NCBI GenBank assembly: GCA_947447005.1
Contig: CANFHO010000007.1
Location: 1 to 47,655, forward strand
Reading direction: 5' to 3'
DNA: 47,655 nt
From: Chitinophagaceae bacterium
GTDB lineage: Bacteria > Bacteroidota > Bacteroidia > Chitinophagales > Chitinophagaceae
In this document: piece after piece, positions 6,935 to 25,171 of the stretch
Position numbering within the stretch: the stretch's first letter is position 1
Layout of the letters: every line of letters starts with the position of its first letter
Position numbers and translations under genes: made by a program
Notes under the pieces: model-generated
The model's input: the letters and a program-made list of their open reading frames with translations, nothing else
Database searches by the model: none
Told to the model about the DNA's origin: nothing

Positions 6935-8104
6935 TTGAGAATTCGCTTTACCATATTTTTAAAAGGATTTTATCACCTCATTGCAAGTCGATCTTGTATC
7001 AGTTTGATTTTTTTGACCATGTGCCACTTTATCATTCTGTCAAAGGCACAAGGGCAATTCAGAAAATATTCAAATGAATTTTTAAATATCGGCGCAGGTG
7101 CCAGAGGGATGGCAATGGGAGGGGCACAGGTTGCTTCTGTTTCGGATGCAACAGCAGGTTATTGGAATCCGGCAGGTTTGGTTGATGTGAAAGATCATCC
7201 GGTTTTATCATTGATGCATGCTGAATATTTTGCAGGAATTGGAAAATATGATTATGCTTCCATAGCCATTCCTATTGGAGATCCAGCATTGGCTACCAAG
7301 ACTTTGGGTGTAACTTTGATGAGATTTGCTGTAGATGATATTCCCAATACGCTTTACCTGGTTGAACCTGATGGCACAATCAATTACAATAATATCCGAA
7401 CTTTTTCTTCTGCTGATTATGCTTTTTTGCTTTCCTATGGGCAAGTAATTTATGGCGACGATGAAAAAACGTTTTCATTTGGTACCAATGCCAAGTTGAT
7501 TCATAGAAACGTTGGAACCTTTGCAAAAGCCTGGGGTATAGGTGCTGATCTTTCATTGCAATATCATTCCAGCAAGTTTAATTTTGGTGTTGTTGCAAGA
7601 GATATTACAACCACTTTCAATGCATGGCAGTTCTCTTTTACCGACAAAGAAAAAGAGATTCTTTATCTTACCAACAATAAGATTCCTGTTCGATCAACGG
7701 AACTTACTGCTCCCCGGTTGATTATTGGAGCAGCCTATTCTGTTCCTCTTTCAGATGCACTCAAGTTGATGTCGGAAGTCAATATGGATCTAACTTTTGA
7801 TGGTAAAAGAAACGTCCTTATAAGCACCCAACCCATGAGTATTGATCCACGAATGGGACTTGAATTGGGATATAAAGAAACACTCTACGGACGATTGGGG
7901 GTATATAATTTTCAGCAGGCTTTGAAAGATGGTGACCTTACCAATCTTAAAAAAGTATGGATTTATCAACCTAGCTTAGGAGTTGGGTTTAAAGTAAAGA
8001 ACGTGGATATCGATTATGCTTTCACCAACCTGGCGAATCAATCCAATCCTTTGTATACCCATATTTTTTCATTGAAATTGAATTTGATCAGGACAGAAAA
8101 ATAA
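6935..8104 (+). CDS. PorV/PorQ-family outer-membrane beta-barrel protein (T9SS associated)
   Basis: FLNIGAGARGMAMGGAQVASVSDATAGYWNPAGL signature; immediately upstream of the PorU-like gene. Confidence 0.85.
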   Translation: MRIRFTIFLKGFYHLIASRSCISLIFLTMCHFIILSKAQGQFRKYSNEFLNIGAGARGMAMGGAQVASVSDATAGYWNPAGLVDVKDHPVLSLMHAEYFAGIGKYDYASIAIPIGDPALATKTLGVTLMRFAVDDIPNTLYLVEPDGTINYNNIRTFSSADYAFLLSYGQVIYGDDEKTFSFGTNAKLIHRNVGTFAKAWGIGADLSLQYHSSKFNFGVVARDITTTFNAWQFSFTDKEKEILYLTNNKIPVRSTELTAPRLIIGAAYSVPLSDALKLMSEVNMDLTFDGKRNVLISTQPMSIDPRMGLELGYKETLYGRLGVYNFQQALKDGDLTNLKKVWIYQPSLGVGFKVKNVDIDYAFTNLANQSNPLYTHIFSLKLNLIRTEK

Positions 8105-8110
8105 ATCATC

Positions 8111-11100
8111 ATGAAGAAAAGGATCCTGCAAACAATATTTCTGATTTCACTTGTGGTCATGGCCCATGTGAAGGCAGATGCTCAATTCAATAATGAATGG
8201 ATTGATTTTAATAAGACGTATTATAAATTCAGTGTTGGGAGCAACGGACTTTATCGCATTCCTTTTGGAACCTTGCAAGCAGCAGGACTCTCCTCAACAC
8301 CTGCTGAACAATTTCAACTTTGGAGGAACGGAAAAGAAGTATCTATCTATACATCGATTCAATCTGGCATGTTATCTGGCTCAGACTATATCGAGTTCTA
8401 TGGTCTGATGAATGATGGAAAACCAGATGCAGTATTATATAAAGATCCAGCTTTTCAATTGGCTGATAAATGGAGCCTGCAAACAGATACTTCCGCATAT
8501 TTCTTGACCATCAATCCAGCTCCCAATGCCAGGCTTGTTAATACTTCAAACAATGTATCGAGCAACACGTTGAGCCCAGAGCCATATTTCATGTATATGC
8601 TCTCTAAAAATTATAAGGATCAAATCAATCCCGGATATGCTTCCATTGTAGGGATTTATGTGTATTCATCTTCATATGACAATGGTGAAGGGTGGACAAG
8701 CCGTAATGTTCAAAGCAATTCACCTATCGTTGATCAATACAACGACTTGTATGTTTCAAGTGGCGGTCCTGATGCAAGTATCAGGGTTACTGCTTTTGGG
8801 AATACCTTAAGTACCAGAAAAGTACAGGTATCAGTCAATGCAAATGTACTCATTGATCAACCCATGGATTATTTTTCTGGAGCTGACAGACTGGTGAGTT
8901 TTCCAAGTTCTTTGTTGGGAAGAGCGATTGATACCATACGAATTTCAAACAGTACAAGTGTGTCAACAGATAGGATGGTGGTTGGAAAATATGAATTGAA
9001 ATATCCTCGCACTTTTAATTTTGGTGGGAATAGTATTTTTGAATTTAGTTTACCAGGCACATCAGTTGGGAATTATTTGGTGATTACCAATTTCAGCGCA
9101 GGCACTGTGGCTCCTATATTGTATGATTTAAGCAATGGCTTAAGATTCATTGCGGATATCACTGTAACAGGGAAATATCGATTTTTATTACCACCAGGAG
9201 GAAACAGGGATTTTGTTTTAATGAGTAACGCTTCATCTGCTATAAAAACCATTGATCTGCTGAAACAAAAAAAATTCATTGATTTTTCGGTAGCAGCCAA
9301 TCAAGCCAATTATCTAATCGTCTCTCATCCAAGTATGTCAATTAGCAACAATGGCGATGCATTGGATAAATACAAACTGTATCGCTCCAGTAATGCTGGA
9401 GGTAGTTATAAAGTTAAAATATATGATATTGATGAATTGGTTGACCAATTTGCATTCGGTATAAAAAAGCATCCATTATCGGTTAAAAATTTCCTTTCCT
9501 ATGCCAGACAATTTTTTGCACAAACACCTCAGTATGCGTTGTTGATTGGCAAAGGAATTACCTACGATCAATATCGACTAAATGAATCCAAGGCTGTAAC
9601 TGAACGCATCAATATTGTTCCAACATTCGGAAATCCTGGGTCTGACAATATTTTAGCCTCAGCAGATTTAGATGCTACTGCTGATATCTCCATTGGTAGA
9701 TTATCTGCTACAACAGGGGATGAGGTGTTGGCTTATCTGGATAAAGTCAAAGAGCATGATATAGTCATTTCATCTCCCAGTCAGACTGTCAAAGACAAAG
9801 GATGGATGAAAAATTTTGCCCATATCGTTGGTGGTGGAGATCCCTATCTTCAGTCAGTCATAGATGGGTACATGAGCAATGCCAGAAATATTATTGAGGA
9901 TACTTCGTATGGGGCACATGTATATACTTTTAATAAACTATCTGCAGCTGCGATTGAGCAAGTAAATTCCGGATTATTAAGCAGTCTGTTTTCCGAAGGA
10001 CTGGGAATGGTTACCTATTTTGGGCATTCTTCTGCGAATAGCATGGAATTCAATCTGGATGATCCCTCTATATTCAACAATCCAGGCAAGTATCCGCTGT
10101 TCATGGCCAATGGTTGTAATGCGGGTAACTTTTTTATATATGATACATTGCGTGCAACTGCAGGCAAGAAAAATATTGCTGAAAATTATGTACTGATTCC
10201 TTCCAAAGGTAGTATTGGGTTCATTGCCAGTACGCATTATGGAATTGTTAACTACCTGAATCTATACACATATCTTTTTTACAGTCATATGGCAAAGCAG
10301 GATTATCGATCCGGCATCGGCGATCTGCAACGAAATGTGATGCAGGAAATGTTAGCGGTTGGTGGTTCAGATGATTTTTACAATGTAATGACCGCGGAAC
10401 AGATGCTCTTGGGTGGCGACCCTGCCGTAAAATTATATGCGTTTGATCAAGCAGATTATGCGATCGAAGATCCATATATCAAGATCAGTCCCACGCCTTT
10501 GTCTGTCACCAATGCCAACTTCGATTTGAAAGTGAAATATTTCAATTTGGGCAAGGCTGTGAATGATTCAGTTCATGTTCGCATCAAAAGGGAATTGCCT
10601 GATGGCAGTCTGATAACATTGTTTGATCAAAACAGAGCACCTGTTCATTATGCTGATTCCATCAATTTGTCGGTGCCCATCAATCCGTATACCGACAAGG
10701 GACAAAACAAGATCATCGTTTCTCTGGATCCAGATGATGTGAATCAGGAGATTACCAACAACAATAACAATATCACCAAGTCGTTTCCCATTTTGGAAGA
10801 TGATGTGCGACCAGTATATCCTTTGAATTTTGCCATTGTAAATTCTAACGCAATCAAGCTTACAGCAACCACCAACAACTTCTTAGCTGTTCCAAAGAAT
10901 TTTATTGTGGAAGTGGATACTACAGAATTGTTTAACTCTCCTTTGAAAGTAACACAAACCCAATCATCTATTGGTGGGGTGATTGATTTTACACCAACCA
11001 TACCATTTAGGGACAGTACCGTTTTCTATTGGCGTGTTGCTAAAGTACCGGATACAGGCATTGTGAACAAATGGTCTTATTCATCTTTTGTTTATATCCC

Positions 11101-13174
11101 TGCCAGTTCCACCGGCTGGAACCAATCGCATTATTTTCAGTATTTGAAGGATAATTTTATAAACTACTATTTTGATAGTACAAGGATCGAGAAATTTTCG
11201 ATAAAAAAAAATGACTTTAGATATTTTACTGGGCTATATCCTGTTTCATTAAATTATGCCTATTCGAATCTTACTATTCTTACAAGTGGTGGTTGTGCAG
11301 AGTCTTTGGGCGCACTGGAGTTCTATATAATTAATCCTGAAAATAATTTGCCACTTGAAAATATACCTCGTGGAAGTGTGGGCAAATTTAATAGTATGAC
11401 ATCTTTTTGTAATACTACTCTAATGAGGAAATATCTTTTTTGGTATAAATATGATAATCCAGCTAGTCGGAAATACGCATATGATTTATTTGATTCTGTG
11501 TCTGTTGGTGCCACTGTTGTTATGAGTAGTTTTAATTTAGTAACAAATTCAAACCCTAATCTATTTATTAATGAATGGAAAAAAGATACATTAATCTATG
11601 GAGCTGGCAAGTCTCTTTACCATAGATTGAGATCAATTGGATTCAGTGGTATAGATTCATTTTATAGAAATATCCCAATACTTTTTGTTGCAAAGAAAAC
11701 TCGAAATGGGTGGACAGTAATTGAAGATAAAGTTGGAAATTCACAGACTGATATTTTGTCTACAAATTTTTCATATTACGGATTAGAAAGTAGAGGTGGT
11801 TATACTACCTCAATAATTGGACCTTCAAAATCATGGACATCTATTCACTGGAAAGGATTGTCACAAGAACTCAATTCAAAAGATGAAATAAACTATAAAG
11901 TCTTTGGGGTTAAGAATGATTTCACCGAAACCCTGATGTACTCCAGCACCGCGAAACAGAAAGATACTACCTTGTCTTTTGTAAGTGCATCTACTTATCC
12001 TTACTTGAAAATCTATCAGGAAAATACAGATACGCTCAACAATACACCCTGGCAAACAAAGTACCTGCAGGTCAAATACCAACTGGTTCCCGAAGGTGCC
12101 ATCACACCTGCCACCAATCTTGTTTTTAAGGACACCGTCGAAGTGGGTGAACCCATCAAAGTAAATATGGCTTTTAAAAATGTTACACCTGTTCCATTTG
12201 ATAGCATACGATTGTATATGACATCCACAGACCCATCTAACAATACAAAGGTCATTGTAGATGAAAATAAACGACCCATTACTGCGCAAGGGGATACAGT
12301 GTTGGTGAATTACAATATTGATACGAAAAATCTAGTAGGTGATAATTTAGTGAATATTACATTCAATCCCAATTATACACAACCTGAACAATACCTGTTT
12401 AATAATTTCATATCGAAGTCCATATATGTACGTCCAGATACCTATGCGCCCAATCTCGATGTAACTTTTGATGGTGTACATATCTTAAATAAGGATATTG
12501 TATCTCCTAAGCCAGTCATACTTGTGAAATTGAAAGATGACAGTCGTTTTCTTGCTTTGAATGATACCAGCCTGTTTTCTGTTAAACTCAGAATGCCCAA
12601 CGGACAAGTCAGAAACATTAAGTTTGACAGCGACACCTTATTGTTTACACCTTCTTCATTAACCCCTGGGGGAACTGATAATACTGCAATGGTAACTTAT
12701 AAGCCCTATTTGCCACTTGATGGAGAATATGAATTGATTGTTACAGGAAAAGATAGAAGCAACAATGCCTCCGGCGTATTTGAATACAGAGTTTTGTTTG
12801 AAGTATTCAATAAATCTATGATTACCAATTTATTGAACTATCCCAATCCATTTACAACAAGCACTTCTTTTGTCTTTACACTTACCGGATCTGAGCTACC
12901 AACAAATCTGCGCATACAAATCCTGACTGTATCTGGAAAGATTGTAAAAGAGATCAATAAGAATGAATTGGGCCCTATTCGCATTGGGAATAATATCACA
13001 GAATATAAATGGGATGGAACTGATCAGTTCGGTCAGCCCCTGGCAAATGGCGTGTATATTTACAGAGTGATTACTGATATCAATGGTAAGAAATTGGATA
13101 AACTTCGAAGTTCAGGATTTAATACTGATAAATATTTTCAAGGAGGTTATGGTAAAATGTATCTAATGCGATGA
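8111..13174 (+). CDS. Large C25-family (gingipain-like) cysteine peptidase, PorU2-type T9SS sortase-like protein with C-terminal sorting domain
   Basis: YFGHSSANSMEF (His) and PLFMANGCNAGNFF (Cys) C25-like motifs; C-terminal NYPNPF...WDGTDQFGQPLANGVYIYRV T9SS-type domain; adjacent porV-like gene. Confidence 0.8.
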   Translation: MKKRILQTIFLISLVVMAHVKADAQFNNEWIDFNKTYYKFSVGSNGLYRIPFGTLQAAGLSSTPAEQFQLWRNGKEVSIYTSIQSGMLSGSDYIEFYGLMNDGKPDAVLYKDPAFQLADKWSLQTDTSAYFLTINPAPNARLVNTSNNVSSNTLSPEPYFMYMLSKNYKDQINPGYASIVGIYVYSSSYDNGEGWTSRNVQSNSPIVDQYNDLYVSSGGPDASIRVTAFGNTLSTRKVQVSVNANVLIDQPMDYFSGADRLVSFPSSLLGRAIDTIRISNSTSVSTDRMVVGKYELKYPRTFNFGGNSIFEFSLPGTSVGNYLVITNFSAGTVAPILYDLSNGLRFIADITVTGKYRFLLPPGGNRDFVLMSNASSAIKTIDLLKQKKFIDFSVAANQANYLIVSHPSMSISNNGDALDKYKLYRSSNAGGSYKVKIYDIDELVDQFAFGIKKHPLSVKNFLSYARQFFAQTPQYALLIGKGITYDQYRLNESKAVTERINIVPTFGNPGSDNILASADLDATADISIGRLSATTGDEVLAYLDKVKEHDIVISSPSQTVKDKGWMKNFAHIVGGGDPYLQSVIDGYMSNARNIIEDTSYGAHVYTFNKLSAAAIEQVNSGLLSSLFSEGLGMVTYFGHSSANSMEFNLDDPSIFNNPGKYPLFMANGCNAGNFFIYDTLRATAGKKNIAENYVLIPSKGSIGFIASTHYGIVNYLNLYTYLFYSHMAKQDYRSGIGDLQRNVMQEMLAVGGSDDFYNVMTAEQMLLGGDPAVKLYAFDQADYAIEDPYIKISPTPLSVTNANFDLKVKYFNLGKAVNDSVHVRIKRELPDGSLITLFDQNRAPVHYADSINLSVPINPYTDKGQNKIIVSLDPDDVNQEITNNNNNITKSFPILEDDVRPVYPLNFAIVNSNAIKLTATTNNFLAVPKNFIVEVDTTELFNSPLKVTQTQSSIGGVIDFTPTIPFRDSTVFYWRVAKVPDTGIVNKWSYSSFVYIPASSTGWNQSHYFQYLKDNFINYYFDSTRIEKFSIKKNDFRYFTGLYPVSLNYAYSNLTILTSGGCAESLGALEFYIINPENNLPLENIPRGSVGKFNSMTSFCNTTLMRKYLFWYKYDNPASRKYAYDLFDSVSVGATVVMSSFNLVTNSNPNLFINEWKKDTLIYGAGKSLYHRLRSIGFSGIDSFYRNIPILFVAKKTRNGWTVIEDKVGNSQTDILSTNFSYYGLESRGGYTTSIIGPSKSWTSIHWKGLSQELNSKDEINYKVFGVKNDFTETLMYSSTAKQKDTTLSFVSASTYPYLKIYQENTDTLNNTPWQTKYLQVKYQLVPEGAITPATNLVFKDTVEVGEPIKVNMAFKNVTPVPFDSIRLYMTSTDPSNNTKVIVDENKRPITAQGDTVLVNYNIDTKNLVGDNLVNITFNPNYTQPEQYLFNNFISKSIYVRPDTYAPNLDVTFDGVHILNKDIVSPKPVILVKLKDDSRFLALNDTSLFSVKLRMPNGQVRNIKFDSDTLLFTPSSLTPGGTDNTAMVTYKPYLPLDGEYELIVTGKDRSNNASGVFEYRVLFEVFNKSMITNLLNYPNPFTTSTSFVFTLTGSELPTNLRIQILTVSGKIVKEINKNELGPIRIGNNITEYKWDGTDQFGQPLANGVYIYRVITDINGKKLDKLRSSGFNTDKYFQGGYGKMYLMR

Positions 13175-14358
13175 TGACGCACCAAGATATATCATCGACG
13201 GAGCTTCAACTTTTGTTGAGTAGCTGTAAAGAGTTGCTTTATCCAAATGCCAATCGTGGATTAGTTGAAACATTTTTAAGTAAAGTTGATTACAATAAAC
13301 TTTTAAGATTAATTAGAAGACATCAAATCGCTCCTGTTATTTATCAATCATTAAAAGATTTTGCGGATAAAATGAGCCCTGGTTTCAGCCATGAATTGAG
13401 GGGTGATATTCAGAGAATTCAACTAAAAGCACTTTCAACAAAAGCATTTTTATATGTTCTAAATAATAAATTAAAAGAGAAAGAGATTGAACTCTTTTTG
13501 TTAAAGGGAATTGCCCTTGCTGAAAAATATTATGGCGATATCGGATTGAGAGATGTCATGGACTTAGATTTGCTGGTTGAACCCCAAAATCTAGATACTG
13601 TCATACAGTTATTACAAGAACTGGGATACTCAATTTCTGGTGAGTATTCGACTTTTTCAAACAAGCAGAAGGAATTTGTAAAATATATAGACTATCATTT
13701 CGGGTTTTCAAAAATCAAGGAAGGACATCCCCGATATGTTGAATTGCATTGGGCTTTGAGAAACCGATTTGGGAATTTTGTCCTTGATCCTTTTATTTGC
13801 AAACAAGAAAAATCAACACAAAGTATCGTTAACCAAGAATACTTGTTAGAGCTTTCTGAAATCGATAACTTTCTTTTTTTATGCACGCATGGGGCAGAAC
13901 ATGCTTTTTATCGGTTGAAGTGGTTGGTTGACATTTACATGGTTTACAACAAAATTGACATTGATTTTAATGATTTGGTTGAGCGATCTATATCATTGCA
14001 ATGTTCTGAACAACTAGTACTATCTTTTAAGATGATGGAAATTTATTTTGCTATTCCAATCCCTGATCAGATACTTCAACTTTCAAAAAAATATAAAATC
14101 TCGCAGTGGCTTGTGAATTACTGTACTCATCAGATTATGTACAATGGTCAATATTGTGACTCTTTAGTAGAGAAAATGAGAAATTTGAGATTTTCATTTA
14201 TCATGAATAGAAAAGGTATTTTCAATAAGCGGTTATTTATGAGATACATGACCAGTCCCAAAGACTGGAGCATCTTGCCTTTGCCCAATTCATTGTTCTT
14301 TTTGTATTTCCCCCTGCGACCATTCCTGTTTTTATACAGAATACTTACTAGCTCCTAA
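13171..14358 (+). CDS. Nucleotidyltransferase family protein (NTP_transf_5-like), lasso-cluster tailoring candidate
   Basis: LFLLKGIALAEKYYGDIGLRDVMDLDLLVEPQNLD; ATGA overlap with the preceding porU2-like stop codon. Confidence 0.75.
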   Translation: MMTHQDISSTELQLLLSSCKELLYPNANRGLVETFLSKVDYNKLLRLIRRHQIAPVIYQSLKDFADKMSPGFSHELRGDIQRIQLKALSTKAFLYVLNNKLKEKEIELFLLKGIALAEKYYGDIGLRDVMDLDLLVEPQNLDTVIQLLQELGYSISGEYSTFSNKQKEFVKYIDYHFGFSKIKEGHPRYVELHWALRNRFGNFVLDPFICKQEKSTQSIVNQEYLLELSEIDNFLFLCTHGAEHAFYRLKWLVDIYMVYNKIDIDFNDLVERSISLQCSEQLVLSFKMMEIYFAIPIPDQILQLSKKYKISQWLVNYCTHQIMYNGQYCDSLVEKMRNLRFSFIMNRKGIFNKRLFMRYMTSPKDWSILPLPNSLFFLYFPLRPFLFLYRILTSS

Positions 14359-14371
14359 GTGTATTTAGTCG

Positions 14372-16150
14372 CTAAATTTTTTGTCTTGAGTATAATGCTT
14401 CAAATACCCCTCCATTATTGATCAGTTCATCAAATTTTCCATGTTCTTTGATCATCCCATTCTCCATCACATAAATATGATCTGTCATTTTCAGGTTGTA
14501 TAAGCGGTGTGAAACGAGTATCGTGATTTTGTCTTTACAATGCTCTTTCAGGTTATCGTATAAAGTCTGTTCAGAAATGGCATCCAATGCACTACTGGGC
14601 TCATCCAATACAACCAATTGAGATTGGCGATAGAATATTCGACTCAATGCCAGTTTCTGCCATTCTCCTCCACTTAACTGCTCACGACTTTGAAAAATAT
14701 GGCCAAGCCTTGTGTCGTACCCATTCGCTAATTTATCAATGAATTCATGTGCACCTGATTTTTTTGCAGCATCGGATATACTCGTATGATTAACTTTCGT
14801 CGACAGTAATTCGAAATGAATATTCTCATTGACTTTTAAAAAGTATTTTTCAAAGTCCTGGAAAAAGATTGCACTATTTTCAAACAGTGTCTGATTAGGA
14901 ATATTGCGACTTGATATATCATTGAAATAGATTTCACCTTGGTTTGCTTCATACATTCCAGTGATGAGTTTTACCAGGGTTGATTTTCCTGAGCCGTTTT
15001 CTCCTACGATGGCAATCACCTCACCTTTTTTTGCTTTGATGTTAATGTCCTGCAAAGTATTATCTGCTTTTCCTGGATAATGAAAGCTGAGATTTTTTAT
15101 TTCGAGGGAATGTAGATTCTGAGGGAAAGATGTTAATGTCGAAGCCTCTATTTCAGGATCTTTTATTTTCAAAAAAGCAAAAAGATCTCGGAAGAAGATC
15201 CGTAATTGAAACACTTGTAAAAACGATTGAAAAAATGTAGTGGAGACAGTTTGTAGTCGCTGTATTCCCTGCAGGTAAATAATAAAAAATCCGATGGTGA
15301 TTTCTTTTTGATAAGCCGATCTGGCCAAATACGTCAATGCAGTACTGAAAACAAGTATTTCCAATGCTTCTGCAAGGATATTTTTTTTTAAGCTAATGGA
15401 TTGAAGTTTATTTTTTTCGTCAACAATCCAGGATCGAATTGCTTTGAATGTTTGAAGAAAATTATGTCCAAATCCATACACCCTGAGCTCTTTTGCATAC
15501 TGAAACCCTGTCAACAATTGAAATATATACCCAGCTTCTCTTTCCTTGTTCACCAATTTAAATTCAAGGTCTGTCGCTTTCTTTGCCAACATCCATTTAT
15601 GAATAGCCGCAGGAATGGCAAAAAACATAAGTATGAGAAAAAAATAGGAATGCAGTGTGATGAAAAAAGCACACAATAAGAAAACGGAGATAAGGCTTGA
15701 AATCGTTCCGTTCAAAGCCGGAATCAATTGTGCAGTTCTGTACAGCGCCTGTTGTTGAGCGAGATGCAAGGTTTTATGGAAATGCGGGTCTTCGTAATAA
15801 GGATATGAAACCCTACCTGCTTTTTCAATTACTTGAAAGGAAAAATGGTCAGCCACTTTCAGTTGAAAACGGGTTGTAATATGGTCGCCCACCAATTGAC
15901 TGGCTGTTGCAAAGAGTAGGGATGCAGCCAGAATTCCCATCATGACGATAATCTGCTGAAATGTAGATGGATGAACTGTAAAGGCGTCAATAATTTGTTT
16001 GGTTTGGTAAATCGCAATCAGTGGCATGATGGATGAAATCAGCCTGATTCCCAGGATGCCTATCGACATGGAAGGGTCAATCTTCCACACGGACGTAAGC
16101 ACGTTTGCCATTTCTTTGATGCCTTTTCTCCAATTCATTAGCAGCTTCAT
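14372..16150 (-). CDS. ABC transporter, fused permease/ATPase (lasso peptide exporter candidate, D)
   Basis: Walker A VGENGSGKSTL, LSGGEWQKLALSRIFY signature, VLDEPSSALD Walker B, SHRLYN; N-terminal TM domain; ATG at 16150 (MKLLMNWRKG) avoids overlap with the divergent gene. Confidence 0.82.
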   Translation of the reverse strand: MKLLMNWRKGIKEMANVLTSVWKIDPSMSIGILGIRLISSIMPLIAIYQTKQIIDAFTVHPSTFQQIIVMMGILAASLLFATASQLVGDHITTRFQLKVADHFSFQVIEKAGRVSYPYYEDPHFHKTLHLAQQQALYRTAQLIPALNGTISSLISVFLLCAFFITLHSYFFLILMFFAIPAAIHKWMLAKKATDLEFKLVNKEREAGYIFQLLTGFQYAKELRVYGFGHNFLQTFKAIRSWIVDEKNKLQSISLKKNILAEALEILVFSTALTYLARSAYQKEITIGFFIIYLQGIQRLQTVSTTFFQSFLQVFQLRIFFRDLFAFLKIKDPEIEASTLTSFPQNLHSLEIKNLSFHYPGKADNTLQDINIKAKKGEVIAIVGENGSGKSTLVKLITGMYEANQGEIYFNDISSRNIPNQTLFENSAIFFQDFEKYFLKVNENIHFELLSTKVNHTSISDAAKKSGAHEFIDKLANGYDTRLGHIFQSREQLSGGEWQKLALSRIFYRQSQLVVLDEPSSALDAISEQTLYDNLKEHCKDKITILVSHRLYNLKMTDHIYVMENGMIKEHGKFDELINNGGVFEALYSRQKI

Positions 16151-16203
16151 TTGTACCTTGATGCGTTGGGTTGTATATTTACGTCTAAAGGTACTCAAAA
16201 CAG

Positions 16204-17109
16204 GTGTATTATTATTGGGCATATGGACTTACAATTGCGTCTGGAATTGAATTTCCTGAATTGTTTCCTATTGCATACACTGAAACAGTCGATGTTACGT
16301 TGGAATATGGGGTAGTGCCACCAAAAATTGAAGCCTCAACTGGATATGCCTCTGATTCCATCAGTATTTCTCCCATTGAGTATCTGTTGCATGTACAAAA
16401 AGTGGCGTCCTATTATGTATCTGATGGGAAAAAAATTGTGATACAATCGCTGGAAGATGCAGATGATACCAGTATCCGATTGTTTTGTTTGTCTAATGCG
16501 TTTGCCGCATTGCTGCATCAACGAGGTTCCATTCCGTTGCATTGTTCCGCTTTCATAGATCAGGAGCAATTGGTCTTGATTATGGGAGATTCTGGGGCAG
16601 GAAAATCGACTACTTTGGCCGCGATGGTCCAGGCAGGATATACCCCTTTTTCAGATGATGTCTGTGTGCCCTTGTGGGAAAAAGAACAAAAAAGGCTGAA
16701 TATGGTCAGTTCCTATCCGATGATGAAATATTGGGGCGACACATTTAAATTGATCAATTTGGGTGAAAGTGATCGTAAGATTCGGCCAGAGATTGATAAA
16801 TATGGGGTATATTTTCACGATCAGTTTATTTTGGACCCCATGCCCGTGAAAATGGTCATCATTTTAGAGAAAGATCCAGTGGCAGAAGGTGTTGTTGTCA
16901 AAAAATTAACAGGGGTGGATCTGTTTCAGCGTCTGGAACGTAATGCTTATAGAGGAGAGTATCTGGGGTATTCAGGATTGCAAAAAGAGCATTTCAAGCT
17001 TTTTGCTGGCATAGCCAATGCAACCAAAGCGTTTCTCATCAAACGTCCAGGGGTAGGAGATAGTATATTGGGAATGCAAAAAACTATTTTAGAATTATTG
17101 TCAATATAA
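16204..17109 (+). CDS. HPr kinase/phosphorylase-like protein (lasso peptide kinase candidate)
   Basis: LVLIMGDSGAGKSTTLAAMVQAGYTPFSDDVCV: P-loop plus downstream SDD typical of HprK-like proteins; GTG start giving YYYWAYGLTIASGIEFPEL. Confidence 0.8.
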   Translation: MYYYWAYGLTIASGIEFPELFPIAYTETVDVTLEYGVVPPKIEASTGYASDSISISPIEYLLHVQKVASYYVSDGKKIVIQSLEDADDTSIRLFCLSNAFAALLHQRGSIPLHCSAFIDQEQLVLIMGDSGAGKSTTLAAMVQAGYTPFSDDVCVPLWEKEQKRLNMVSSYPMMKYWGDTFKLINLGESDRKIRPEIDKYGVYFHDQFILDPMPVKMVIILEKDPVAEGVVVKKLTGVDLFQRLERNAYRGEYLGYSGLQKEHFKLFAGIANATKAFLIKRPGVGDSILGMQKTILELLSI

Positions 17110-17145
17110 GAACGGTAAGCATAATTTTACAGCATAGCTAACTTT

Positions 17146-17421
17146 ATGACAGAACAAATTAGGTATTTACAAAACAAGGAAATCATACAATCAAAGATTG
17201 GAGAAGAAGTGGTCATGTTGGATGTGGAAAGTGGATTTTATTTTGGGTTGAATTCGGTGGCCTCCATCATTTGGAGTCTGCTAGAGAAAGAAATTGCATT
17301 TGATGAATTGATCAGTCAGTTGATGTCGCAGTTTGAGGTCGAACGAGCATTGTGCGAGCAGGACACACAGGAGTTGTTGGATCAACTACTTGAAAAAAAT
17401 ATCATTCGTATTGCATCATGA
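17146..17421 (+). CDS. PqqD-like RiPP recognition element protein (lasso B1)
   Basis: 91 aa; VVMLDVESGFYFGLNSVASIIWSLLEKEIAFDELISQLMSQFEVE is a PqqD-family pattern. Confidence 0.85.
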   Translation: MTEQIRYLQNKEIIQSKIGEEVVMLDVESGFYFGLNSVASIIWSLLEKEIAFDELISQLMSQFEVERALCEQDTQELLDQLLEKNIIRIAS

Positions 17422-17828
17422 AAGTATATTCTTTCAGGGAGTATAGCTGTTTTCTCGAAGCGTGGGTTCTTTTGCATCTCATGAAAGGGGTAATCCTTTT
17501 TGTGCCATTTAAAAAGATCGCTTCTAAGATTGGCACAATCCAAAAAGAATCAGATCATCAGATTGTGGAATCCAAGGAGCTTGACATGGTTTGGAGATCC
17601 ATTCACCGGGCCAACAGATTTACAATTCACAAGAGTGTATGTTATGATCAGGCTTTAACTGCAAAGCTGATGTTGAAAAGAAGGGGAATAGTCTCTACCT
17701 TGTATTTCGGATTATCCAAAGATGAAAAGGAACAGATGATTGCACATTCCTGGGTTCGATGTGGAAACAAGATAGTTACTGGAAAATCAGGGATGGAGCG
17801 TTTTACGGTGGTGGCTTCTTTTACATAA
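17418..17828 (+). CDS. Lasso peptide biosynthesis B2 protein (transglutaminase-like leader peptidase)
   Basis: NRFTIHKSVCYDQALTAKLMLKRRGIVSTLYFGLSK...IAHSWVRCGNKIVTG: Cys and His motifs of B2; ATGA overlap with B1. Confidence 0.85.
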   Translation: MKVYSFREYSCFLEAWVLLHLMKGVILFVPFKKIASKIGTIQKESDHQIVESKELDMVWRSIHRANRFTIHKSVCYDQALTAKLMLKRRGIVSTLYFGLSKDEKEQMIAHSWVRCGNKIVTGKSGMERFTVVASFT

Positions 17829-17849
17829 ATCAAATAATTACATCATACC

Positions 17850-19835
17850 ATGAGCGGATTTTGGGGAATTTTCAGACCAGATGGTGGTCAGGTCGATATG
17901 GAGGCTTTCAATCAGATGTGTAAAGCATCTGAAAGGGATGGCTTTGATGGCATGGAAACCCATGTGGAGGATGGCATAGCGATGGGGCATCTCATGTTAA
18001 GGGTGTCACCAGAATCGCAGTATGATAAGCAACCTTTGAAAAGCGATTGTGGAAATTATCTATTGGTAGGGCATTTTCGGTTGGATTATCGTGATGAGTT
18101 AGGTGACAAGTTGGGTTTAACTCAATCTGAGCTGGAAAAAACACCAGACTCTCGTTTGGCAATGATGGCTTACATCAAATGGAAAGAAAAATGTGTTCAT
18201 CATCTTGAGGGAGACTGGGTGTTTTGTTTATATGAAAGCATTAGAAATAAGCTGTTTATCTTAAAAGATTCAATAGGAGTATCCGCATTATTTTATTTTA
18301 CTTTTAATGAGCAGTATTATTTTAGCACTAGTTTAGATGTTTTTATTAATAATACTAATTTTAATTTAAAATTTGACTTTGTTGAGTTGCATAGATTGAA
18401 GCTGAGGATGCTTCCATCAAATCTAGGGAGAACAATTATTAAAGATGTTTATTGTTTAAAAAATGGACATGCTGTTTCGATTGATAGTGATAAAAAATTG
18501 GTCGAGGTAAATTACTTTAATAAAATCCATGATTTAAGATTAGAGTACAGTCATATTTTAGATTATATTCTGGATTTTAAAATATTATTTTTTTTAGCAG
18601 TTAAAAGTAGGATGCTAAAAGATAATTCAATTGGGATTTTTTTGAGTAGCGGACTAGACTCCACAGCAACAACTTGTATGCTATCGAAGCAGTTGCCTTT
18701 TACAAAAAGCAAGTTATTTTCGTTTACTTCATTTCCCTATTATTTAAAAAATATTCCTCAGAAGTATCATAGCAAAGTAGATGAATCTCCTTTGGTTGAT
18801 GCTTTTTCTAAATCCTTTCCTGAAATTAATTTTTCATTTTTGAATTTTGAAAATGAAAAATTAAGTGCCTTGTTTAGCAACTCTAATGTGATTGATTATT
18901 TTGATCCTAGATTACATCAAAATACTTTTTGGATTCATGGTATTTTAAGAGAAGCAAAATCTAAGAAAATAAAAAGAGTTTTTAATGGGCAAATGGGGAA
19001 TTTTACTTTGACATGGGCGGGTGCAAACTTGAATTTTGAATTATTTAAATCCTTTAAGTTTAAAAGTTTATATAAAAACCTTAAACAAATTTCAGTGCTT
19101 GAAAACAAAACAATTTTATCGATAATTAAAGTTGATATCTTGAAAAAGATTTTCTATTTTTTAAAGCCACTTAATTCATTTGAAACCCCAAGTTGTTTTT
19201 TAGAAGTGTCAACAATCCTAATGTCGAAAAGCAAGTATAATTTATTGAAAAAAGAATCCAGAAGGAAGCTTAAAAACAATCTAATTTCAAATTCATTATC
19301 GTCAAGAGTTAATTCAGTAACTTATAGCATGGATTATCTTTCTATTAAATGGTATCTGCAAAGTCATAACTATTCTTTAGAAAGTGTGGATCCCACGATA
19401 GATAAACGGTTTTTAAATTATTGTTTGAGGATTCCCAATTATCTATTTAATTACAAAGGAGAGAAAAAATATATTTTTAGAATTGCATTTCAAAAGTTGT
19501 TGCCTGATCTAATTCTAAATCAAAAAAATAAAAAATCCCAGTCTGTTGATATCGGGGATAGAATAATTAGGGATGATCATTTTTTTGAATTATTAAATAA
19601 AGTTGCACAAGGTTTAAAAGATCATCCGTATATTAAATTGAATGATTCTATATTTACACAATTTGAAAAAATGAGTTCTAGTAGAATCTATTATAAAAAG
19701 CAGTTAATTGCAAATGAGATTCTTATGGAATTATCGCTAACAAATTTTTTATTTGAAAATTTAAATATGTTTCCTAATTTTGAAAAAAAAGTTTATAATG
19801 GAAACAACTTTCCTCGAAGCTTGGATAAAGCCTGA
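17850..19835 (+). CDS. Asparagine synthase-like lasso cyclase (C)
   Basis: MSGFWGIF...HLEGDWVFCLYE N-terminal AsnB-like domain with Ser instead of nucleophilic Cys2; IGIFLSSGLDSTATTCML ATP-PPase motif. Confidence 0.85.
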   Translation: MSGFWGIFRPDGGQVDMEAFNQMCKASERDGFDGMETHVEDGIAMGHLMLRVSPESQYDKQPLKSDCGNYLLVGHFRLDYRDELGDKLGLTQSELEKTPDSRLAMMAYIKWKEKCVHHLEGDWVFCLYESIRNKLFILKDSIGVSALFYFTFNEQYYFSTSLDVFINNTNFNLKFDFVELHRLKLRMLPSNLGRTIIKDVYCLKNGHAVSIDSDKKLVEVNYFNKIHDLRLEYSHILDYILDFKILFFLAVKSRMLKDNSIGIFLSSGLDSTATTCMLSKQLPFTKSKLFSFTSFPYYLKNIPQKYHSKVDESPLVDAFSKSFPEINFSFLNFENEKLSALFSNSNVIDYFDPRLHQNTFWIHGILREAKSKKIKRVFNGQMGNFTLTWAGANLNFELFKSFKFKSLYKNLKQISVLENKTILSIIKVDILKKIFYFLKPLNSFETPSCFLEVSTILMSKSKYNLLKKESRRKLKNNLISNSLSSRVNSVTYSMDYLSIKWYLQSHNYSLESVDPTIDKRFLNYCLRIPNYLFNYKGEKKYIFRIAFQKLLPDLILNQKNKKSQSVDIGDRIIRDDHFFELLNKVAQGLKDHPYIKLNDSIFTQFEKMSSSRIYYKKQLIANEILMELSLTNFLFENLNMFPNFEKKVYNGNNFPRSLDKA

Positions 19836-19926
19836 AATGATCCAGTTAGATACAATGTCTACTAATGACGTTGGTAAAAATGGTTTGACTGTAGATTGTT
19901 CAAATTGTACTGCTACATATTCATAA
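19798..19926 (+). CDS. Candidate lasso precursor peptide (A), 42 aa
   Basis: Translated by hand: METTFLEAWIKPEMIQLDTMSTNDVGKNGLTVDCSNCTATYS; WxxPxM leader motif (variant of YxxPxL), Gly26 with Asp8-of-core, C-terminal Ser; overlaps cyclase 3' end by 38 nt in another frame; too short for the ORF track. Confidence 0.7.
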   Translation: METTFLEAWIKPEMIQLDTMSTNDVGKNGLTVDCSNCTATYS

Positions 19927-19980: not shown

Positions 19981-20175
19981 ATGTTAATCATCGATTCTAA
20001 AGATTGCGAAAACATCGACAAGGCTCTCAAGAAGTACAAGAAGAAGTTTGAAAAAGCTAAAATTTTGTTGCAACTCCGTGAGCGTCAATCATTTACCAAG
20101 CCTTCTATCAAGCGTAGGGGCGAAGTGTTGAAAGCAATCTACAAGCAGAAGATCTTCAACGGAGAAATCGAATAG
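19981..20175 (+). CDS. rpsU: 30S ribosomal protein bS21
   Basis: 64 aa MLIIDSKDCENIDKALKKYKKKFEKAKILLQLRERQSFTKPSIKRR. Confidence 0.93.
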   Translation: MLIIDSKDCENIDKALKKYKKKFEKAKILLQLRERQSFTKPSIKRRGEVLKAIYKQKIFNGEIE

Positions 20176-20227
20176 TCTGATCTGTTTAAACTAATTATAC
20201 CAAGTAGTCATATGGTTTTGTAACTTT

Positions 20228-21145
20228 ATGACTACTTTTTTTATGCCCCAAACTCCCCATATTGCGATCATTTCTTTCATCGATCATATCAAGTTCGAGA
20301 AACGGTTTTCTGCCCATACCATAAGAGCATATACGGATGACTTGAATGATTTTTTCGATTTTTTGAAGTCTCAGTTTGAAGTGGAGCATGCAGCAGAAGT
20401 AAACACCCCCATGATCCGCAGCTGGATGGCAGCTTTGTCGCATGCGGAAGTCCAGTCACGAAGTATCAACCGTAAAATCTCCTCATTGAAGTCCTTTTTC
20501 AAGTTTTCTATGGTCCAGGGACTGGTGTCAGTCAATCCTGCCAAGGGAATTACCGTGATGAAGGTCCGGAAAAGATTACCCAATTATGTGGATGAAGCAC
20601 AAATGGAGACACTTTTTACGGCGGTTCAGTTTCCGGAAGGATTTGAGGGTATAACGGACAGGGTTATTCTTTCTCTTTTATATCAAACCGGCATGCGCGT
20701 AAGTGAGCTGGTAAGCTTGAAGGAAGGGCAAATGGATAGGGGAGGAAAGCATATAAAGGTGTTGGGGAAGGGTAATAAAGAGCGCATTATCCCGGTTGGG
20801 GTTGAACTTCTGAAGATGATCGACATCTACATACAGGCAAAAAAAGAACAATTTGGGGGCTTAGAACTAACACATTTATTGGTTACTCCCAAGGGGAAGC
20901 CCCATACATCCAGATCTGTGTATGATGTGGTAAAAAAATATCTTTCTTTGGTGACAACTGCAGAGAAGAAGAGTCCACACGTATTGCGTCATAGTTTTGC
21001 CACACATCTTACTTCAAATGGTGCAGAGCTCAATGCGGTTAAAGAATTGCTTGGGCACAGCAGTTTGGCAGCTACCCAGGTGTATACCCATAATAGCATC
21101 GAGCGGTTAAGAGATATACACAAGAAGGCCCATCCCAAAGGATGA
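20228..21145 (+). CDS. Tyrosine recombinase XerC/XerD
   Basis: LLYQTGMRVSELVSLK, LGKGNKERIIPV, HVLRHSFATHLTSNGAELNAVKELLGHSSLAATQVYTH: complete R-K-HxxR-H-Y set. Confidence 0.93.
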   Translation: MTTFFMPQTPHIAIISFIDHIKFEKRFSAHTIRAYTDDLNDFFDFLKSQFEVEHAAEVNTPMIRSWMAALSHAEVQSRSINRKISSLKSFFKFSMVQGLVSVNPAKGITVMKVRKRLPNYVDEAQMETLFTAVQFPEGFEGITDRVILSLLYQTGMRVSELVSLKEGQMDRGGKHIKVLGKGNKERIIPVGVELLKMIDIYIQAKKEQFGGLELTHLLVTPKGKPHTSRSVYDVVKKYLSLVTTAEKKSPHVLRHSFATHLTSNGAELNAVKELLGHSSLAATQVYTHNSIERLRDIHKKAHPKG

Positions 21146-24607: not shown

Positions 24608-25171
24608 TTAAGAAGCAGAACCTTCACCACCTTCAGTTGTTGGTGTATCAACCGTTGGGAACAGTGTTGGAGTTTCAACCACAGCAGGTGCTGCTGCAAC
24701 TACTGGAATTGGAGCTGGTTTTGCTTTTGGTTTAGAGATTTTTTTAGCTACTTTTTTAGGAGCAACTTTTGCTGCAACTGGAGCTGCCTTTTTGGGAGCT
24801 GCTTTCTTCGCTGCTGGTTTTACTGCAACCGGTGCAACTTTTTTAGGTGCTGCTTTTTTAGCCACTTTTTTAGGAGCAACTTTTGCTTTAACTGGAGCTG
24901 CTTTCTTTGCTGCTTTTTTAGGGGCTGCTTTCTTTGCTGCTTTTTTAGGAGCTGCTTTCTTTGCTGCTTTTTTAGGAGCTGCTTTCTTTACTGCTTTTTT
25001 AGGAGCTGCTTTCTTCGCTGCTTTTTTAGGAGCTGCTTTCTTTACTGCCTTTTTAGGAGCTGCTTTTTTCGCTGCTTTTTTAGGTGCTGCCTTTTTCACG
25101 GCTTTTTTAACAGCCTTTTTGGGTGCTGCTTTCTTTGCCGGCTTCTTTGTTGATTTTTTTGCTGATGCCAT
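24608..25171 (-). CDS. Histone H1-like Lys/Ala/Pro-rich repeat protein
   Basis: MASAKKSTKKPAKKAAPKKAVKKAVKKAAPKKAAKK... repeated KKAAPKKA units with an acidic/neutral C-terminal tail. Confidence 0.8.
   Translation of the reverse strand: MASAKKSTKKPAKKAAPKKAVKKAVKKAAPKKAAKKAAPKKAVKKAAPKKAAKKAAPKKAVKKAAPKKAAKKAAPKKAAKKAAPKKAAKKAAPVKAKVAPKKVAKKAAPKKVAPVAVKPAAKKAAPKKAAPVAAKVAPKKVAKKISKPKAKPAPIPVVAAAPAVVETPTLFPTVDTPTTEGGEGSAS

What the first reader, a model, noticed from the sequence alone, without database searches (positions are those of the whole stretch)
13171..19926. Lasso-peptide biosynthetic gene cluster next to a T9SS sortase-like operon
Sequence shows, in order: nucleotidyltransferase (13171+), fused ABC exporter (14372-), HPr-kinase-like protein (16204+), PqqD-like RRE (17146+), B2-type Cys/His peptidase (17418+) and an AsnB-like cyclase (17850+). 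The B1/B2/C triad is the established hallmark of lasso peptides. Kinase and nucleotidyltransferase are known tailoring partners in some Firmicutes lasso clusters. The order, with the exporter divergent and the precursor last, differs from the classical A-C-B-D order.
Basis: partly seen in the sequence, partly recalled or inferred. Interest (0 to 1): 0.82.

Follow-up and report, generated by a model that had tools for sequence, protein, structure and literature searches.

The report
Lasso-type cluster with lysine-anchored cores
A lake bacterium carries a peptide-making gene cluster built like those for knotted 'lasso' peptides, but in it and its relatives the peptide's ring-closing spot seems to have moved from the front end to one invariant lysine, which would be a new way of closing such rings.

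Summary
13171-19926 encodes nucleotidyltransferase, divergent ABC exporter, HprK-like kinase, RRE (B1), B2 peptidase, AsnB-type cyclase and a 42-aa precursor, beside porV2/porU2. The cluster lies at the same site (porU2...rpsU-xerC) in about 17 congeneric freshwater Chitinophagaceae. Kinase plus nucleotidyltransferase in lasso clusters is already known (pseudomycoidin, bsf).

The precursor is new. All relatives keep the lasso leader (WxxP, Thr at W+13), but the canonical ring (acidic residue at core 7-9) occurs only at chance level (6/13), against 22/26 in other Bacteroidota clusters. Instead 13/13 different cores, and 3/3 found later as a test, have exactly one Lys with Asp six or seven residues on (shuffle product about 1e-13). 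15/16 have two Cys; 16/16 end in Ser. In one subgroup a 20-residue core starting right after T(-2)-x is invariant while its leader diverges, so leader removal looks ordinary and the Lys lies inside the mature peptide.

Best reading: the cyclase joins the Lys side chain to Asp, giving a 26/29-atom ring equal to lasso 8/9-residue Glu rings. The rival is a displaced cleavage with Lys at ring position 2. No chemistry was tested. The cyclase's last 80% plus precursor is also a hypervariable cassette.

The parts
13171..14358 (+). NTP_transf_5 nucleotidyltransferase (N); candidate tailoring enzyme, by analogy with PsmN/BsfN
   Evidence: PF14907 165.9 bits; conserved in the same place in relatives
14372..16222 (-). 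ABC exporter with fused permease/ATPase (D); the true start may be about 72-84 nt further in, since this ORF overlaps the divergent kinase start by 19 nt
   Evidence: PF00005 above cut-off, NHLM/MsbA-type hits
16204..17109 (+). HprK-like kinase (K); predicted to phosphorylate the invariant C-terminal Ser
   Evidence: weak HprK profiles; conserved Walker A and SDD motifs among 12 relatives
17146..17421 (+). B1, PqqD-type RiPP recognition element
   Evidence: PF05402 and NF033536; PDB 9x90_B lasso PqqD chaperone E 3.9e-13, TbiB1 4.9e-12
17418..17828 (+). B2 leader peptidase (transglutaminase-like Cys-His)
   Evidence: NF033537 81.5 bits, cut-off 33
17850..19835 (+). C, AsnB-type lasso cyclase; position 2 is Ser, so it lacks the glutaminase Cys; PPi loop SSGLDS intact
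   Evidence: NF033535 best hit; AF2 pLDDT 85.7, closest folds Asn synthetase and beta-lactam synthetase; clade 100/100
18210..19926 (+). hypervariable cassette: cyclase residues from about 125 to the end, plus precursor; both edges approximate
   Evidence: identity and GC break at about codons 121-130 in relatives
19798..19926 (+). precursor peptide A: leader METTFLEAWIKPEMIQLDTMSTN, predicted core DVGKNGLTVDCSNCTATYS with K4-x5-D10, two Cys, C-terminal Ser
6935..13174 (+). flank: porV2 (6935-8104) and porU2 (8111-13174), type IX secretion; fixed neighbours, not claimed to be part of the pathway
   Evidence: NF052325 530.7 bits, NF052324 845.7 bits, both above cut-off
19981..21145 (+). flank: rpsU (19981-20175) and xerC (20228-21145), fixed downstream neighbours

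Best explanation
This is a lasso-type RiPP cluster: B1 binds the WxxP leader, B2 cuts after T(-2)-x, C adenylates an Asp and forms a macrolactam, K phosphorylates the C-terminal Ser, N may extend that phosphate, D exports. What differs is the nucleophile. The ring is most likely closed by the side-chain amine of the single invariant core Lys onto the Asp six or seven residues later (window: K4 to D10 of DVGKNGLTVDCSNCTATYS), leaving a free N-terminal segment as well as a C-terminal tail, usually pinned by a disulfide. SHOWN by sequence: gene set, fixed site, conserved leader and Thr, loss of the canonical core register, K-x5/6-D rule, two Cys, C-terminal Ser. INFERRED: cleavage site in the window, Lys side chain as nucleophile, disulfide, phosphorylation, any threading.
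For: K-x5/6-D in 13/13 distinct cores; 20,000 within-core shuffles never exceeded 8. Canonical acceptor (D/E at core 7-9): 6/13 in this clade, shuffled mean 4.9; 22/26 in other Bacteroidota precursors, shuffled mean 8.6, where K-x5/6-D occurs in 1/26. Alpha-amine rings to that Asp would have to range from 7 to 20 residues, while the Lys-Asp span is constant. Ring atoms: Lys epsilon to Asp i+6/i+7 = 26/29, equal to lasso 8/9-residue Glu rings. Boundary: the core KNFIQCDGIGVPGEDYACFS is invariant in L035, L036, L038 with many synonymous and no nonsynonymous changes, while the leader upstream of T-S is full of nonsynonymous ones; L115 and L116 have the same core. Two Cys in 15/16 cores, mostly one on each side of the Lys, argue that both segments stay in the mature peptide. 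The cyclases form one clade, 100/100, sister to the genus-g24 cyclases, whose precursors fit an 8/9-residue ring.
Against: No chemical data. The residue before Lys is Gly/Ala/Ser in 10 of 15 cores against about 32% expected, which is what a displaced core with that residue at position 1 and Lys at position 2 would give; lariocidin (Ser1-Lys2...Asp8; PMC11451635) is a precedent for Lys2 with Asp8. The published rule for lasso cyclases is the N-terminal amine as nucleophile (PMC13352647). Lys could be conserved for target binding. Cores are few (16 distinct), and three come from loci where the cyclase is absent (L043, L111) or the contig is cut inside the precursor (L113).
Confidence: 0.47

Rival explanations
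1. Ordinary alpha-amine lasso ring with displaced leader removal: core residue 1 is the residue before Lys, Lys is ring position 2, Asp is position 8 or 9 (window: GKNGLTVD ring, tail CSNCTATYS). The extra residues after the conserved Thr are removed by B2 or by a second protease.
For: Ring sizes are exactly 8 or 9 in all cores. Gly/Ala/Ser precede Lys in 10/15. The window register then puts W(-17), P(-14), M(-12), as in BsfA. Lariocidin has Ser1-Lys2-Asp8.
Against: The Thr sits at a fixed W+13, where T/I/V(-2) sits in many relatives, but the would-be residue 1 lies from one residue before to eleven residues after the expected site. Phe, Asn, Gln, Thr would have to serve at position 1. In L035, L036, L038 the invariant block starts right after T-S. 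The first of the two conserved Cys would usually be lost. Invariance of Lys is not explained by the ring itself.
Confidence: 0.3
2. Ordinary lasso cluster whose rings close from the T(-2)x N-terminus at unusual sizes (window: a 10-residue ring, Asp1 to Asp10).
For: A few distant Bacteroidota precursors also put the acid at core 10 (L049, L050, L073).
Against: Across the clade the ring would have to run from 7 to 20 residues for homologous cyclases, while the Lys-Asp span stays at 6 or 7.
Confidence: 0.1
3. The invariant Lys and Asp serve recognition or activity (ribosome, lipid or receptor binding) and the product is linear or cyclised in some other way, for example only by disulfide.
For: No ring has been observed; cyclases diverge strongly while one core stays fixed.
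Against: The cyclase keeps its ATP-PPi loop and AsnB fold; a constant spacing equal to lasso ring size is not expected of a binding motif.
Confidence: 0.08

Closest known systems
Pseudomycoidin (psm) and paeninodin lasso clusters of Firmicutes
   Same: Split B1/B2, C, D, HprK-like kinase and (psm) nucleotidyltransferase; C-terminal Ser as kinase target (PMC8498205)
   Different: Those cores close from the N-terminal amine. Here the core register fails, one Lys and two Cys are conserved, the precursor comes last and D is divergent. The window precursor does not match the paeninodin profile NF033524.
bsf cluster of Bradymonas (kinase, nucleotidyltransferase, Ile(-2))
   Same: A, B1, B2, C, D, K, N gene content; YxxPxL leader (PMC10368454)
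   Different: bsf has Gly1-Asp8 and kinase action on Ser3; here Thr is kept and the invariant Ser is C-terminal
Lariocidin B, proposed class V lasso
   Same: A Lys side chain takes part in an isopeptide bond; Lys six residues before the ring Asp (PMC11451635)
   Different: There Lys2 joins the C-terminal carboxyl as a second ring; the main ring is still Ser1-Asp8
Sister cyclases of Chitinophagaceae genus g24 (L039, L070, L098, L099), two of them (L039, L070) also beside porU2
   Same: Same enzymes, sister cyclase clade, same upstream neighbour where seen
   Different: No Thr at W+13 and no conserved Lys; cores fit an 8/9-residue ring from I(-2)N(-1)

Membership tests
Lasso peptide cluster (split-B type) | Stand-alone RRE (B1) | tested here: met
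   PF05402 above cut-off; PDB lasso RRE matches; NF033536 just below its cut-off
Lasso peptide cluster (split-B type) | B2 transglutaminase-like leader peptidase | tested here: met
   NF033537 81.5 bits, cut-off 33
Lasso peptide cluster (split-B type) | AsnB-type cyclase, lasso-specific model | tested here: inconclusive
   NF033535 is the best hit at 221.6 bits but its cut-off is 525; fold and PPi loop fit
Lasso peptide cluster (split-B type) | Precursor leader with aromatic-xxP motif and penultimate Thr | tested here: met
   W..P and Thr at W+13 in the window and relatives
Lasso peptide cluster (split-B type) | Asp/Glu at core 7-9 for the alpha-amine ring, counted from T(-2)x | tested here: not met
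   Window L7 T8 V9; clade 6/13, chance 4.9
Lasso peptide cluster (split-B type) | Threaded [1]rotaxane topology | not testable with these tools
   needs NMR, ion mobility or a crystal structure
Phosphorylated lasso type (paeninodin/pseudomycoidin) | HprK-like kinase with C-terminal Ser in the core | tested here: met
   Kinase adjacent; C-terminal Ser 16/16. Activity not tested.
Phosphorylated lasso type (paeninodin/pseudomycoidin) | NCBIfam NF033524 paeninodin-family precursor | tested here: not met
   No hit for the window precursor; 2 of 15 aligned precursors hit, best E 7.1e-5
Class III/IV lasso (one disulfide) | Two Cys forming one disulfide in the mature peptide | not testable with these tools
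   Two Cys in 15/16 cores; oxidation state unknown

The most novel reading that the evidence does not exclude
A clade of lasso-type cyclases uses the side-chain amine of an internal lysine, not the N-terminal amine, to close the ring on Asp, so the mature peptide has tails at both ends. The cyclase body plus precursor is exchanged as a cassette at a fixed chromosomal site.
Probability: 0.42. Interest if true: 0.85.

Novelty: new variant of a known kind. Interest (0 to 1): 0.62.

Why it matters
Every lasso peptide described in the papers read here has its main ring closed from its N-terminus, which limits design to peptides with a fixed start. A natural cyclase clade that closes on an internal lysine would allow rings with extensions on both sides, give a new macrolactam type for genome mining (current rules would miss or misread these precursors), and provide about a dozen natural cyclase/substrate pairs with which to ask how these enzymes choose their nucleophile.

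Tried and rejected
Canonical core from T(-2)x: rejected, chance-level acceptors. Core starting at the Cys: no consistent acceptor. NF033524 search of own genome: no hit anywhere, uninformative alone. Direct genome-collection scan with the cyclase gave only 4 relatives, all already in the genus set. Order-, phylum- and family-wide searches gave comparators but no further member of the Lys clade. Other clusters of the same genus (L045, L047, L049, L050) sit elsewhere in the tree and have I(-2) precursors; they are a second family. Literature searches for a lasso cyclase using a Lys side chain found only lariocidin's second ring; subscription papers were not searchable.
Full report
OBSERVATION. 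The window carries, in order, nucleotidyltransferase (13171+), divergent ABC exporter (14372-16222-), HprK-like kinase (16204+), PqqD-type RRE (17146+), B2 peptidase (17418+), AsnB-type cyclase (17850-19835+) and a 42-aa precursor (ATG 19798..19926+). B2 passes its lasso-specific cut-off (NF033537, 81.5 vs 33 bits). B1 matches solved lasso RREs (PDB 9x90_B E 3.9e-13; TbiB1 4.9e-12). The cyclase's best model is the lasso cyclase NF033535 (221.6 bits) but below that model's cut-off of 525. The kinase is only weakly HprK-like by profile. Upstream are PorV2 and PorU2 (both above NCBIfam cut-off), downstream rpsU, xerC and then tRNA genes with tuf and ribosomal protein genes.

PLACE. The window is contig C7 of a 2.9-Mb genome. 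Relatives are Chitinophagaceae MAGs, one of them named as from Erken; 'freshwater lake' rests on such sample names. The cluster stands at the same address, porV2-porU2-N-(D)-K-B1-B2-C-A-rpsU-xerC, wholly or in cut contigs, in about 17 congeneric genomes besides the window's own. D is not found at the site in some (L031-L033, L035, L036). In G041 the site is empty (porU2, a phosphatase-like gene, riboflavin synthase, rpsU). Kinase plus nucleotidyltransferase in lasso clusters is published (pseudomycoidin, bsf), so gene content alone is not new.

PRECURSORS. Right after C in each complete locus lies a short ORF with a WxxP leader and a Thr exactly 13 residues after the Trp (one search lists them). 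In other Bacteroidota clusters fetched as comparators, with T, I or V near W+13 taken as -2 (W+14, W+15 or W+10 in some), an Asp/Glu follows at core 7-9 in 22 of 26 against a shuffled mean of 8.6. Because I chose the register of comparators by hand, that count leans towards the rule. In the window's clade, with the Thr as -2, the acidic residue at 7-9 is at chance (6/13, mean 4.9, P 0.35).

THE LYS-ASP RULE. Each of 13 distinct cores has exactly one Lys, and Asp (never only Glu) stands six or seven residues later; 20,000 within-core shuffles never exceeded 8 of 13. When any residue pair and spacing is allowed, shuffles reached 12 of 13 twice in 1500 and 13 never; that is the looser, multiple-testing-aware figure. 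The rule was then tested on precursors found later by walking upstream from rpsU: L127 (G030), L111 (G038) and L113 (G037) are new cores and all obey it. Combined shuffle product 10^-12.9 for 16 cores. Two Cys occur in 15/16 and a C-terminal Ser in 16/16. The cyclase tree shows a single clade (100/100) for the Lys type, sister to the cyclases of another genus whose precursors lack a conserved Lys.

WHERE THE LEADER ENDS. L035, L036 and L038 share the core KNFIQCDGIGVPGEDYACFS letter for letter, with many synonymous changes and no amino-acid change, although their cyclases are only about 45% identical and their leaders are full of amino-acid changes up to the T-S. L115 and L116 have the same core after T-T. 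This places the boundary at T(-2)-x in this clade, so the segment between Thr and Lys (core residues 1 to 12 at most) should stay on the product. L032 and L127 have similar cores (LC.GK...NDDAE.GSTCS.S), the similarity again including residues before the Lys.

MECHANISM. With a fixed leader cut and a Lys at core position 1 to 13, rings made by the N-terminal amine would need 7 to 20 residues, whereas Lys epsilon-amine to Asp gives constant rings of 26 or 29 atoms, the size of lasso 8- and 9-residue Glu rings. I therefore favour a side-chain-to-side-chain macrolactam (about 0.47). The main rival, displaced cleavage with Lys at ring position 2, keeps about 0.3, because Gly/Ala/Ser precede the Lys in 10/15 cores and lariocidin shows Ser1-Lys2-Asp8. 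AlphaFold gives the cyclase an AsnB/beta-lactam-synthetase fold (pLDDT 85.7); it does not decide the nucleophile. The role of the kinase (C-terminal Ser) and nucleotidyltransferase (sugar on the phosphate) is by analogy with paeninodin and pseudomycoidin. The biological activity is unknown; export and the lack of any obvious regulator are compatible with a secreted antagonist or signal.

CASSETTE. Cyclase residues 1-125 are conserved (92-96% among L025, L026, L029, L030), but residues 126-370 fall to 27-35% between those same loci. L025, L026 and L030 are about 77-92% identical in DNA over N, D, K, B1 and B2. The break lies within about 30-60 nt at codons 121-130 in every pair examined, and GC drops there (window 0.44 to 0.28). 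L022 and L029 share an allele (66%). I read this as exchange of a cassette holding the cyclase body and precursor. Very fast divergence with a constrained N-terminus is not excluded, and the 3' edge was not mapped beyond lying before rpsU. In the L035 group the core is fixed while the cyclase diverges, so cyclase divergence is not driven by core change alone.

LIMITS. No chemistry, no topology, no activity; 16 distinct cores from one genus, three from loci where the cyclase is absent or the contig is cut; MAG contigs; subscription literature not searchable.

Noticed in passing
18210-19926 and relatives L022-L030: Sharp loss of identity and GC at codons 121-130 of the cyclase in every pair examined; the cyclase body plus precursor looks like an exchanged cassette.
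   Followed up: partly
L135, L136, L138, L043: Precursor ORFs left behind at the rpsU site without a full cyclase, next to porV2 fragments or tyrS in some: repeated deletions that seem to have removed porU2 and the cluster together. The L136 precursor also diverges from its relative L037 at the 3' end.
   Followed up: partly
L032 4390-6550: The precursor is in frame with the cyclase with no stop between them, a cyclase-precursor fusion or a sequence error; in the window the two overlap by 38 nt just after an A8 run.
   Followed up: no
L049 2261-2554, L050 11820-12014, L073 15090-15269: Lasso-like precursors of other clades with the acidic residue at core 10 counted from W+15; possible 10-residue rings or shifted starts.
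   Followed up: no
L039, L070, L098, L099: In Chitinophagaceae genus g24 lasso-type clusters also lie beside porU2 in L039 and L070; precursors have I(-2)N(-1) near W+10 with Asp at core 8 or 9.
   Followed up: partly
24608-25171: Histone H1-like Lys/Ala/Pro repeat protein (KKAAPKKA) on the minus strand between nusG and rplK.
   Followed up: no
16204-16222: Listed starts of the divergent exporter and kinase overlap by 19 nt; an internal Met of the exporter (about 16150) is a likelier start.
   Followed up: no
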